From NCBI GenBank assembly GCA_017409845.1, contig JAFQRY010000021.1:1-64000 (forward strand): DNA of 64,000 nt, given 5' to 3'. The translations under genes and the position numbers were made by a program. Shown here one piece after another: positions 218 through 4,451 of this stretch. This stretch comes from Clostridia bacterium (lineage in GTDB: Bacteria > Bacillota > Clostridia > Oscillospirales > Acutalibacteraceae). Numbering within the stretch: position 1 is the first letter of the stretch; each line of letters begins with the position of its first letter. The notes beneath the pieces are model-generated. The model did no database searches and was not told the origin of the DNA. It was given only the letters and a program-made list of their open reading frames with translations.

Positions 218-490
218 TCAGAACCAGTATTCACAAAGCTCATCAATAAGCTTATCGTTAAGTTCATAAATACCGTCAACCTCATATGGAACAATACAAT
301 CTACCATACAATGCGGACATGCTGCGGTTTCTTCGCCTGAATTTTCTGTTATCCAACTGATAATTTCACCATAAGCGACCGCCTGCTTACAGCATAAACA
401 AACATTGCTTTCTGAGTTCTGCAGTATTTTTCTGTTTTCAGATGAAAAAGAATGTATCAATTCGTAAAAATTTATTTTATCCGTCTTCAT
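218..490 (-). CDS. Small zinc-ribbon-like protein of unknown function
   Basis: About 90 residues starting MKTDKINF. The start codon at 488-490 lies inside the end of the upstream gene (14-base overlap), so the two are probably translationally coupled. Two CxxC pairs (CLCC near residue 32, CPHC near residue 58) suggest one structural zinc ion. The layout C-x2-C, a Trp-Ile pair, CPHCMVDCIVP and a C-terminal EYWF resembles an uncharacterised cytoplasmic family whose members carry CPYCGIDSVI and end in HKYWF. Members of that family can sit beside immunity-type genes, which fits the DMP19 gene nearby, but no function can be assigned. Longer upstream starts exist in the frame but lack a ribosome site. 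Confidence 0.7.
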   Translation of the reverse strand: MKTDKINFYELIHSFSSENRKILQNSESNVCLCCKQAVAYGEIISWITENSGEETAACPHCMVDCIVPYEVDGIYELNDKLIDELCEYWF

Positions 491-773
491 CCTGATCCCC
501 GATGTTTTCAATTGCCGATTCCATATCATCAAGATATCCGTCAATATCGTCAAGAGCATCATCCCACTTGTCATAGGCATCGGTGCTTATGTTTTCGGGA
601 ATTTTGTCTTCAAGCTCATCGAATTTATCCTTGATTTCCTCAAGTTTTTCTGATAAATCCTCAAAACGGTCACGGATTGATTCTGCGGTTAATTCGCTTT
701 CATCCGCAATCCTTATTCTGATTTTTGTTTTTTCCGTTTTCTTTTTTGTTACTCTTTCATTCATACTATTCAC
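477..773 (-). CDS. Hypothetical acidic coiled-coil protein
   Basis: A 98-residue soluble protein. After a short basic N-terminus with KKKTEKTKIRIRI it becomes strongly acidic, and residues about 30-92 have heptad-like spacing (DRFEDLSEKLEEIKDKFDELEDKI) typical of a coiled coil. There is no signal peptide or membrane segment. It starts 3 bases after the stop of the lipoprotein gene at 777 and overlaps the zinc-ribbon gene by 14 bases, so the three probably form one operon. An alternative ATG lies three codons in. No family recognised. Confidence 0.65.
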   Translation of the reverse strand: MNSMNERVTKKKTEKTKIRIRIADESELTAESIRDRFEDLSEKLEEIKDKFDELEDKIPENISTDAYDKWDDALDDIDGYLDDMESAIENIGDQDEDG

Positions 774-2202: not shown

Positions 2203-2236
2203 AAAAAAAATAATCCCTGCAACTGATTGCAGGGAT
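2203..2236 (-). terminator. Rho-independent terminator after the nuclease gene
   Basis: Perfect 10-bp stem (2213-2222 with 2227-2236), a 4-base loop and, read on the minus strand, a run of eight T residues. It closes the WYL-nuclease transcript and overlaps the leader of the next minus-strand gene. Confidence 0.85.
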
Positions 2237-2273: not shown

Positions 2274-3338
2274 TTACGGGAGAAGGGATAAAACAAAATC
2301 TGTCCACGATTTTTGGTTATCAAATTTCATTTCGGGGTTTGCTGTGTTTATGAAATTAAAGCATGAATAGTTTTTTCCGTTCAGACGTTTGTCAATTATT
2401 CTTCTTGTTTCAGTTATATATCCGAAACCGCCGCGATGCGATTCACTTTCTTTCAAAGAAATATACCCCAGCTTCAGCTTCGGATTTTCCGTTGCCATTC
2501 TTTTATATGAGTCTATCATATTTTTTAAAACGGGACAGTTATCCATGTTACCGTCATCATACGAAAAATCGGCTTTTTTATAAAACAAACCGGATGTTTT
2601 GAATTCAACCACCGCAACTACCCTTGACGGCTCAAAAACATTAAGATTCATAATATTTACAGCATCTTTTTCAACAATAAGTGCATCCCACTCAACTCCG
2701 TATCCGTCAATAAATGAATTGGATGGCGAAACTTTATACGGAAGTTCCGATGAATCAATAACAGCCTGCATGTATTTGATAAGAATATTTGCTGTTATGT
2801 TGCCGTGAAGTTTCTTTTTGTCGGAATTTGTTTTTGTTCTTGAATCAATCAGCTTTGAAACTGTTTCATATTCGTTTATTATTTTATCTTCAAACGTTTC
2901 GGGAACCACAGGTATTATATCACAATCATCAAGAAAAAGAGCTTCATCAATTATATCTTTCAGTTCGGAATTGTTTTGCAAGTCGGTTAACGGTTGAGAT
3001 GCGTTGTATCCGTTTTTGGTCAGCTTTTTCGCTTTTATTCTTTGTACGGCATGATAAGATAATGCTGTAAGCTTAAGTTTTACCTTTTTCTTAAAAACTG
3101 TATCTGATGTTTTGATTACATCCAGAACTTCAAGAACGGTTGCAACATATGCTATGGTTTCTGTTTCGCAAAAAACAATCTGATTATCTTCCGCTTTGCA
3201 AATATAGATGTAAAGCACATCTCCTGAATTAAGTCTGTTTTTTGCGTGAGAAATGTCCCACACAACAATTCCGTCTGTATCAAATATGTCCTGAACTGTA
3301 GTTAAATCAGGCTTGATTCTGTAAATGTATTCTGCCAT
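2274..3338 (-). CDS. Putative nuclease: EVE/PUA-like N-terminus plus PD-(D/E)XK C-terminus
   Basis: 354 residues from the ATG that follows GGAGG by five bases. Residues about 1-135 resemble an EVE/PUA-like fold: GIVVWDIS, then GDVLYIYIC, IVFCETETIAYVATVLEV and a KVKLKLTAL strand. EVE domains bind modified bases in DNA or RNA. Residues about 180-354 look like a PD-(D/E)XK nuclease core: EWDALIV supplies Asp218, then VVAVVEFKTSG gives Glu245 and Lys247, the D...ExK signature. The gene follows a WYL-domain regulator by 1 base, the arrangement of many defence loci. I infer a modified-DNA-dependent, type IV-like restriction enzyme. The nuclease motif is clear by eye; the EVE assignment is weaker. 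Confidence 0.65.
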   Translation of the reverse strand: MAEYIYRIKPDLTTVQDIFDTDGIVVWDISHAKNRLNSGDVLYIYICKAEDNQIVFCETETIAYVATVLEVLDVIKTSDTVFKKKVKLKLTALSYHAVQRIKAKKLTKNGYNASQPLTDLQNNSELKDIIDEALFLDDCDIIPVVPETFEDKIINEYETVSKLIDSRTKTNSDKKKLHGNITANILIKYMQAVIDSSELPYKVSPSNSFIDGYGVEWDALIVEKDAVNIMNLNVFEPSRVVAVVEFKTSGLFYKKADFSYDDGNMDNCPVLKNMIDSYKRMATENPKLKLGYISLKESESHRGGFGYITETRRIIDKRLNGKNYSCFNFINTANPEMKFDNQKSWTDFVLSLLP

Positions 3339-3339
3339 C

Positions 3340-4380
3340 TTAACCTCCGTTATATTTCTCATTCATCGCCCTGACTGCATCCGCAATTGCCGTGCGGAGC
3401 GATTCGGGTTCAAGCACTTCAACATGTGTTCCGTACTGCATTGCCCAATGGAACATTGCTCTTTCGTTGACCTTAACGCTGACATCAACGGCTTCTTCCG
3501 TTTCATCTGAGAATTTGACTGCCGTGCCGAACCAGTCAACGATATCGTTGACAATATATTTATCTGCTCTGAATTTAACTTTGACACTCTCGCCGCAGAA
3601 CATATAAATGTGCTCCGCCATGTGCTTGGGTAAATCGAGACCGTTTTTGAGTCCGTTGACCTTTTTCATAGGTTTAACAGCCTCATCGACAATCTCTATA
3701 TCAATGATTCTGTCAATTCTGTAATGGGAAACATTATCGAATTTATCGTAGTTTCCGACAAGATAATATCTGCCGTTTGAGGCAACCATCTGATAGGGAT
3801 TTATGATATATTCCGCAGGCTTGCCGTAGTGAATTCTCGTTTCTCTTTCAAGCTTAAGATTAAAATCGGAATAATGGAATTTAACCTTTTTGCCCTGCTC
3901 AATCGCTTCGTCAAGAATACCGATTGTGTAGAAAAGCTCCTTGTTTGCAGGCATGGTAACAGGCAGATTGCGTACATGACGCACCTTTGCAGAAAAATAT
4001 TTATTGGATTGTTTTTCGAGTTTTTCAATAAGCTCCTTGCATTGACTGTACGGAATATATTTTGAAAAAAGTATGCTGTCGATAAGCAGACGGAGCTCGC
4101 TGTCATCAAACGCACGGGTTATGTACCAATCCGAAAAAACGGTTTCGTCCTCACCGCTTTTTGTTTTGCGGATACGCTCGGAACAGCCGACATCAAAGCC
4201 CATGTCAACCAAATCCGTAAGATTTCTTTTGACGGCTTTTCTGTCAAGCTTAAGACCGTATTCGGATTCAAGCATATCCTGAATCTGCTTCTGTGTGAGC
4301 GTATGCTCGCTGTCGGTATGCTTTTTGAGAATATCAATAATGCAGAGAATTGCGGTTTTCTTTGAGTTGGCCTGATACAT
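3340..4380 (-). CDS. WYL-domain transcriptional regulator
   Basis: 346 residues from MYQANSKKTA, chosen because AGGTG precedes this ATG at good spacing. Residues about 8-65 form a winged helix-turn-helix (LTQKQIQDMLESEYGLKLDR, then a recognition helix with KAVKRNL). Residues about 145-235 form the Sm-like WYL ligand domain: NPYQMVASNGRYYLVGNY and HYRIDRI, with Tyr in place of the usual Trp. A C-terminal WCX-like extension of about 100 residues follows. WYL proteins sense nucleic-acid or nucleotide ligands and often repress phage-defence genes. It is cotranscribed with the downstream nuclease and has operator-like repeats over its promoter, so autoregulation is likely. Confidence 0.88.
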   Translation of the reverse strand: MYQANSKKTAILCIIDILKKHTDSEHTLTQKQIQDMLESEYGLKLDRKAVKRNLTDLVDMGFDVGCSERIRKTKSGEDETVFSDWYITRAFDDSELRLLIDSILFSKYIPYSQCKELIEKLEKQSNKYFSAKVRHVRNLPVTMPANKELFYTIGILDEAIEQGKKVKFHYSDFNLKLERETRIHYGKPAEYIINPYQMVASNGRYYLVGNYDKFDNVSHYRIDRIIDIEIVDEAVKPMKKVNGLKNGLDLPKHMAEHIYMFCGESVKVKFRADKYIVNDIVDWFGTAVKFSDETEEAVDVSVKVNERAMFHWAMQYGTHVEVLEPESLRTAIADAVRAMNEKYNGG

Positions 4381-4383
4381 AAA

Positions 4384-4451
4384 AAAACACCTCAGAAACA
4401 TAATAATGCTTCCTGGGTGTTTTGTCAATGATGTCCGCTTTACGGAACATC
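4384..4451 (-). promoter_or_regulatory. WYL-operon promoter with two inverted repeats
   Basis: On the minus strand a -35 TTGACA (4423-4428) and a -10 TATTAT (4400-4405) are separated by 17 bases, putting transcription start within about 15 bases of the start codon. An inverted repeat (AAAACACCTCAG at 4384-4395 against CTGGGTGTTTT at 4413-4423) spans the -35 edge to the ribosome site. A second (4430-4451, GATGTCCG / CGGAACATC) lies immediately upstream. Because one arm of the first repeat is not transcribed, it is better read as a protein operator than an RNA hairpin. Confidence 0.6.

What the first reader, a model, noticed from the sequence alone, without database searches (positions are those of the whole stretch)
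2274..4423. WYL regulator plus EVE-like/PD-(D/E)XK nuclease: candidate two-gene defence module
Seen: a 346-residue HTH-WYL protein gene is followed after 1 base by a 354-residue protein with an EVE/PUA-like N-terminus and a D218...E245-x-K247 nuclease signature, then a terminator. Known: WYL repressors control several phage-defence systems, EVE domains bind modified bases, and fusions of such readers with nucleases act as type IV restriction enzymes. Inference: a compact, inducible modified-DNA restriction system.
Basis: partly seen in the sequence, partly recalled or inferred. Interest (0 to 1): 0.72.

Follow-up and report, generated by a model that had tools for sequence, protein, structure and literature searches.

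The report
WYL-regulated candidate DNA-cutting defence pair
A Clostridia-type bacterium carries a regulator gene and, in the same operon, an uncharacterised probable DNA-cutting enzyme, most likely a small inducible defence against phages; the kind is known, but this enzyme matches no family in the libraries searched and the one full-length relative found sits beside a retron.

Summary
The gene pair is real: a 346-aa WYL+WCX regulator (4380..3340, minus strand), 1 base, a 354-aa protein (3338..2274) with D218/E245-x-K247, then a terminator (2236-2213). The regulator is solid (Pfam). The partner has no significant match in Pfam, PADLOC, NCBIfam, PHROGs or PDB sequences. Its C-terminal half is shared with two 204-aa proteins (one phage-encoded) and D218, E245 and K247 are invariant, so a PD-(D/E)XK nuclease is likely but unproven: AlphaFold2 failed (pLDDT 34.9, two sequences) and profile comparison with known nucleases gave nothing. 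The EVE-like N-terminus found no support beyond a short weak hint. Of the other 44 same-genus genomes searched, 1 (G018) has the pair; there a type III-A-like retron reverse transcriptase follows it, which the window genome lacks. Of 5 other close paralogues of the regulator, 2 head cassettes with Mrr/REase nucleases and 3 cassettes with sub-threshold UDG-like proteins. Best reading: a WYL-controlled nuclease defence module, possibly modification-dependent, able to exist without the retron. Defence rests on context only; nothing was tested functionally. Known kind (WYL-controlled restriction), orphan nuclease.

The parts
3340..4380 (-). WYL+WCX transcriptional regulator, 346 aa (P0002)
   Evidence: Pfam PF13280 1.3e-11, PF25583 2.1e-10; 94% identical in G018
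2274..3338 (-). probable PD-(D/E)XK nuclease, 354 aa (P0001); N-terminal half of unknown fold
   Evidence: no significant family hit; D218, E245, K247 invariant in 4 aligned proteins; 82% identical in G018
4400..4428 (-). sigma-70-like promoter TTGACA-17-TATTAT upstream of the WYL gene, identical hexamers and spacing in G018
   Evidence: 11 of 12 positions; 7 promoter-like sites in the region against 8.5 expected, so conservation and position are the argument
4384..4423 (-). candidate operator: inverted repeat AAAACACC...GGTGTTTT around the -10 box (weak)
   Evidence: 47 of 1000 mononucleotide shuffles have arms of 8 or more; arms of 9 in G018
2213..2236 (-). intrinsic terminator between nuclease and P0003
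1695..2192 (-). P0003, 165 aa, unknown; 25% identical to the 158-aa protein behind the retron RT in G018; possible accessory
477..764 (-). 95-aa acidic protein, 65% identical to one on the same side of the module in G018; possible accessory
   Evidence: found in 2 of 45 same-genus genomes

Best explanation
A small inducible anti-phage module. The WYL-WCX regulator binds its own promoter and keeps the operon low (inferred, from BrxR/CapW precedents); a nucleic-acid signal of infection or DNA damage bound by the WYL domain releases it (inferred). The partner is a single-chain PD-(D/E)XK endonuclease (likely) whose N-terminal 140 residues choose the target (inferred; could be a modified-base reader, not shown). 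It cuts invading DNA, or the cell's own DNA as abortive infection (inferred). It does not need the retron found beside its sister copy, because none was found in the window genome (inferred from that absence).
For: Regulator domains. One-base spacing with the RBS inside the WYL gene, and the same arrangement in G018. D218/E245/K247 are among 38 invariant of 196 gapless columns across about 25% identity (chance about 0.007 if columns were independent, and effectively only two lineages). Reciprocal match P0007 to P0001, 6.5e-11. Context in G018: retron RT (PADLOC RT_Ec107-like 2.9e-101), McrB/McrC. Of 7 WYL loci at 59% identity or more in 45 genus genomes, 4 have a nuclease gene as second to fourth gene (two being this finding, plus L021 and L023) and 3 a sub-threshold UDG-superfamily protein. 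Outside the genus, WYL relatives lie beside an EVE-McrB/McrC pair (L087) and, judged by eye only, a probable nuclease (L086). No retron RT in G000 at E up to 1e-20. Rare, patchy distribution.
Against: No profile library recognises the nuclease. hhalign of its nuclease half against four nuclease or probable-nuclease stretches gave no support: 39, 20 and 25 of 40 shuffles scored as well for P0009, L023 Mrr and L023 REase-ARP, and the L021 Mrr match (0 of 40) is a 23-column stretch away from the catalytic motif. The AlphaFold2 model is useless, so no fold is shown. No enzymatic or phage evidence. The C-terminal-only relatives have no WYL gene near them and one sits by a phage terminase gene, so the nuclease domain need not be defensive. 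WYL relatives as such are common: 39 of 45 genus genomes have one at E up to 1e-10, the 23-32% identical ones were not inspected, and no random-gene control was counted. Only three window proteins were scanned against PADLOC. Only 15 of 45 genus genomes are at least 90% complete, and two copies are a small sample.
Confidence: 0.55

Rival explanations
1. A sub-case of the best explanation, exactly: a modification-dependent (type IV) restriction enzyme whose N-terminus is a diverged EVE/PUA-fold base reader joined to the nuclease.
For: EVE-PD(D/E)XK fusions and YafY(HTH-WYL)-EVE operons are described (PMC7641849 sections 8 and 9 read), with many EVE domains detectable only by methods such as HHpred; a 23-column stretch with SGD aligns with the N-terminus of the L021 WYL-cassette Mrr protein, 0 of 40 shuffles as good.
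Against: No EVE hit for the N-terminus with the limit at E=10; hhalign against a Pfam-confirmed EVE domain (one sequence) scores below its shuffles, 32 of 40 as good or better; L023 and P0009 N-termini 30 and 4 of 40. The L021 match has a probability of 5.8% only, and L021 also beats shuffles off-motif in the other half, so it may be composition. Structure prediction failed.
Confidence: 0.25
2. The pair is part of a retron defence system: in G018 no PRTase gene was seen by the type III-A-like RT and the WYL-nuclease pair stands there instead; the window copy has lost the retron.
For: RT_Ec107-like/RT_III-A match; structured RNA between nuclease and RT, z -3.29, 2 of 200 shuffles as good; a same-genus retron does carry PRTase-CE (L042); precedent Retron-Sda1, where PRTase was replaced by HipA+DUF3037 (PMC12548924, passages).
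Against: One locus only; no RT found in the window genome; no Rfam match to the RNA; nuclease and RT may just be neighbours; in Retron-Sda1 the replacing effector is said to act on its own.
Confidence: 0.15
3. A WYL-controlled DNA-repair or DNA-damage response nuclease, not a defence system.
For: WYL proteins such as PafBC and DriD act in DNA damage responses (starts of abstracts); the best PDB sequence hit of the regulator is PafC, E 0.071, not significant.
Against: Found in only 2 of 45 same-genus genomes, unlike most repair genes; neighbours in G018 are defence genes.
Confidence: 0.1

Closest known systems
BrxR/CapW WYL repressors of defence operons (PMC9122601 passages; PMC9122588 start of abstract)
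   Same: WYL regulator with defence genes; type IV enzymes are 37 of 210 BrxR-associated defence systems in PMC9122601
   Different: No significant sequence match of P0002 to any solved chain (PafC 0.071, two chains called 'WYL domain-containing protein' 0.64-0.67); the partner is a protein of no known family
EVE-PD(D/E)XK type IV restriction enzymes (PMC7641849 section 9)
   Same: N-terminal domain plus probable PD-(D/E)XK C-terminus in one chain
   Different: EVE domain not detected here
PADLOC PDC-S02 / Mrr_cat proteins in the WYL-paralogue cassettes L023 and L021
   Same: Nucleases in cassettes behind close paralogues of the same WYL regulator
   Different: P0001 itself matches neither PDC-S02 nor Mrr_cat
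Type III-A retrons; Retron-Sda1 (PMC12548924, passages)
   Same: G018 copy abuts a III-A-like RT with no PRTase gene seen nearby
   Different: Window genome has no RT match

Membership tests
WYL-WCX transcription regulators | WYL domain plus WCX extension | tested here: met
   PF13280 44.7 bits (cut-off 21.8), PF25583 41.2 bits (cut-off 23.9)
WYL-WCX transcription regulators | N-terminal DNA-binding HTH | tested here: inconclusive
   only sub-threshold winged-helix hits within residues 10-68
BrxR/CapW defence repressors | homology to BrxR/CapW and repression of the operon | tested here: inconclusive
   phmmer to PDB not significant; no direct comparison with BrxR or CapW made; repression not testable here
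PD-(D/E)XK nucleases | conserved D and (D/E)-x-K motif | tested here: met
   D218, E245, K247 invariant in A2
PD-(D/E)XK nucleases | alpha-beta-beta-beta-alpha-beta core fold | tested here: inconclusive
   AlphaFold2 mean pLDDT 34.9; no Pfam hit; hhalign to known nucleases no better than shuffles or off-motif
EVE/PUA modified-base readers | EVE or PUA-like domain in residues 1-135 detectable by sequence profile | tested here: not met
   no Pfam hit; hhalign against a Pfam-confirmed EVE no better than shuffles. A much diverged domain is not excluded
Type IV restriction enzymes | cleavage of modified DNA only | not testable with these tools
   needs biochemistry
Retron | RT plus ncRNA in the locus | tested here: not met
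   no RT match in G000 at E up to 1e-20; RT present in the G018 locus

The most novel reading that the evidence does not exclude
A retron-linked WYL-nuclease defence unit: a type III-A-like retron whose PRTase effector was replaced by a WYL-regulated orphan nuclease (and a fast-diverging small partner, P0003/P0006), with the window carrying a retron-free form that shows the effector can be passed on and work alone.
Probability: 0.15. Interest if true: 0.65.

Novelty: new variant of a known kind. Interest (0 to 1): 0.42.

Why it matters
If right, it adds a nuclease family absent from the four profile libraries searched, and a WYL regulator family of gut Clostridia that heads interchangeable nuclease cassettes, so the regulator can be used as bait to find new defence effectors. 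The sister pair with and without a retron would be a natural experiment on whether retron parts are needed by neighbouring effectors.

Tried and rejected
Searches for relatives of the nuclease: genome-contig scan gave 1 locus, the G018 one; viral-contig scans with P0001, P0008, A2, A3 and A4 gave none, nor did one with P0003; plasmids none; phages one C-terminal relative, whose own search found only itself. Family: 4 of 349 at E up to 0.01 including own; G277 is real, the other two are at about 0.006 with in-frame stops and were regarded as chance. Class: 1 of 391, own only. Order: 1 of 394, own only. Phylum: 2 of 398, own plus a 92-residue match at 7.9e-4 (query 84-175), regarded as chance. 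P0006: no match in phages or plasmids. The draws overlap.

A conserved 21-base stretch after the nuclease, suspected to be an attachment site, occurs once in each of the two module genomes and in none of the other 43 with up to 2 mismatches, so it is treated as part of the module's 3' end. P0003 as a fixed third component was weakened by its 25% identity between copies against 94% (WYL) and 82% (nuclease); the median is 69% over 62 reciprocal best hits between the two genomes, the pair itself being two of the 62 and the lowest rows probably paralogues. Weak Pfam hits of the G018 nuclease or its N-terminus (DUF4736, 0.0042-0.022) and of P0006 (PIH1, 0.045) are below cut-off and ignored; so are the PDB hits of P0001 and A2 (0.27 or worse). 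In one search the last two C-terminal comparisons printed stale output and were dropped; redid them.

Full report
Observation. The minus strand of the window holds a WYL gene (4380..3340, 346 aa) and, one base on, a 354-aa gene (3338..2274); the second starts behind a GGAGG in the tail of the first. Numbering of D218, E245, K247 is right. A good promoter (TTGACA-17-TATTAT, 4428..4400) precedes the WYL gene and a 10-pair terminator (2236-2213) follows the nuclease (neither kind of site is clearly more frequent in the region than in shuffles). The window is contig C19:1-64000 of a 2.53 Mb draft genome in 35 contigs, so the pair lies about 2 kb from a contig end.

The regulator. P0002 has WYL and WCX domains above Pfam cut-offs. 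Its HTH is not recognised by a profile above cut-off. It has no significant sequence match among solved chains. WYL relatives are common: 39 of 45 same-genus genomes have one at E up to 1e-10. Close ones are not: 7 loci at 59% identity or more, in 5 genomes. All 7 were inspected: two are this module (window, G018); L023 (G021:C19) has a REase-ARP protein (PF22558, 1.3e-30) and an Mrr_cat protein (PF04471, 1.3e-14); L021 (G019:C15) has an Mrr_cat protein (3.6e-13) as fourth gene; L022, L024 and L020 (the last on a 3.1 kb contig) have proteins with sub-threshold UDG-superfamily hits (0.0071, 0.042, 0.016). The two Mrr proteins also match PADLOC's PDC-S02. Seven further loci at 38-43% identity, with longer open frames, lie in other gene cassettes; these were read by eye only, and a 125-residue fragment at 46% (G032) and the 23-32% matches were not opened. 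On plasmids 9 records carry a relative; three of the nine were opened: E. eligens (L086; 54% identical WYL, 20 bases, 336-aa protein without Pfam hit, AAA ATPase), B. proteoclasticus (L087; McrB with an EVE domain, PF01878 1.1e-6, then McrC, then WYL), R. albus (L088; WYL downstream of a non-specific endonuclease, a GIY-YIG protein two genes on). So this WYL family repeatedly sits with nucleases; no matched set of random genes was counted as a control.

The nuclease. P0001 has no hit in Pfam, PADLOC or PHROGs at E up to 1, one meaningless NCBIfam hit (0.12) and only non-significant PDB hits (0.85; profile A2 0.27 and worse). The genus search gives 2 of 45 genomes, own included; 15 of the 45 are at least 90% complete. 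Two 204-aa proteins match its C-terminal part: P0007 in G277 (37%, 1.5e-10) and P0008 in Ruminococcus phage NatCom_28274, next to the terminase large subunit (28%, 2e-10); the reverse search with P0007 in 190 family genomes returns only P0001, at 6.5e-11. In the four-way alignment 38 of 196 gapless columns are invariant, D218, E245 and K247 (and E216) among them. This supports a PD-(D/E)XK enzyme. Against it: hhalign of the nuclease half with P0009, L023 Mrr and L023 REase-ARP is matched or beaten by 39, 20 and 25 of 40 shuffles, and the L021 Mrr match (0 of 40) is off the catalytic motif. AlphaFold2 on two sequences gave mean pLDDT 34.9, pTM 0.23: no information either way. The N-terminal half was found only in the two full-length proteins; Pfam gives nothing for the window copy, and a comparison with one Pfam-confirmed EVE domain is no better than shuffles (32 of 40). 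Other N-terminal comparisons: L023 30 of 40, P0009 4 of 40, L021 0 of 40 over a 23-column SGD stretch with a probability of 5.8%. That is a hint at best.

The sister locus. In G018 the order is WYL, nuclease, about 205 bases, retron RT, 158-aa P0006 (overlapping the RT gene), a 95-aa acidic protein, then genes on the other strand, then McrB and McrC on the WYL strand. The RT's best PADLOC models are RT_Ec107-like (2.9e-101) and RT_III-A (1.6e-96). The intergenic RNA folds better than most shuffles (z -3.29, 2 of 200 as good) with a long closing stem, as expected of a retron ncRNA; Rfam has no match there. A set of PRTase-CE, a small protein and an RT, the make-up of type III retrons as given in PMC12548924, exists in G025. 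G000 has no RT match at E up to 1e-20. In the window the nuclease is followed by a terminator, then P0003, which is 25% identical to P0006 (E 2e-9 for this single comparison), a 294-aa gene that looks by eye like a lipoprotein, and the 95-aa gene (65% identical in G018). The P0003 and 95-aa families were each found in only these 2 of 45 genomes; diverged members could be missed. WYL at 94% and nuclease at 82% lie above the median of 69% of 62 reciprocal best hits between parts of the two genomes, the pair itself included (20 stretches of G018, and 21 stretches of G000 plus the window). P0003 at 25% is far below it. So the WYL-nuclease pair looks like the conserved core, and what follows it is exchanged or fast-evolving.

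Interpretation. Shown: the genes, domains of the regulator, conserved motif, the pair's conservation, the retron neighbour in one of two copies. Inferred: autorepression and release by WYL, DNA cutting, phage defence. WYL repressors of defence systems are in print (PMC9122601 passages; starts of abstracts of PMC9122588 and PMC9122589), and so are EVE-PD(D/E)XK fusions and HTH-WYL plus EVE operons (PMC7641849 sections 8 and 9). The module fits that frame and differs in having an unclassified nuclease and target domain. The Retron-Sda1 case (PMC12548924, passages), where a III-A RT lacks its PRTase and stands by an effector that works alone, is the nearest parallel to G018 that I saw.

Literature limits. 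Seven searches of the held library were made, listing 7 of 7, 9 of 9, 20 of 27, 12 of 567, 12 of 15, 10 of 149 and 10 of 336 papers; judged from titles and starts of abstracts, none of those listed pairs a WYL regulator with a retron and a nuclease as one system.

Verdict. Observation confirmed, interpretation partly supported. Interest moderate: a sound candidate with an orphan nuclease and a telling sister locus, but no fold, no activity and very few relatives.

Noticed in passing
L003:2400-3656 (G018:C4): Type III-A-like retron RT with a strongly folding upstream RNA but no PRTase gene seen in the locus.
   Followed up: partly
L042:345-2814 (G025:C11): Retron set in the same genus with PRTase-CE, a small protein with a weak winged-helix hit, and an RT.
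   Followed up: partly
L020, L022, L024: WYL-headed cassettes with small unknown genes and proteins with sub-threshold uracil-DNA-glycosylase hits; possible base-excision defence.
   Followed up: partly
L025-L031: A longer-framed WYL family (38-43% identical) lies in recurrent multi-gene cassettes in seven same-genus genomes.
   Followed up: no
L007:5968-6582 (PV036439.1): Phage-encoded 204-aa relative of the nuclease half directly upstream of the terminase large subunit.
   Followed up: partly
L003:4403-4484: Skipping-rope RNA (RF02924, 53.3 bits, above gathering) just behind the module in G018; no Rfam match in the window.
   Followed up: no
L086:5001-9802 (E. eligens plasmid): WYL gene, 20 bases, a 336-aa protein with (by eye) a GW/ENDIIW-like N-terminus and an IQVKKGK motif, then an AAA ATPase: a parallel arrangement with a partner that has no Pfam hit.
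   Followed up: partly
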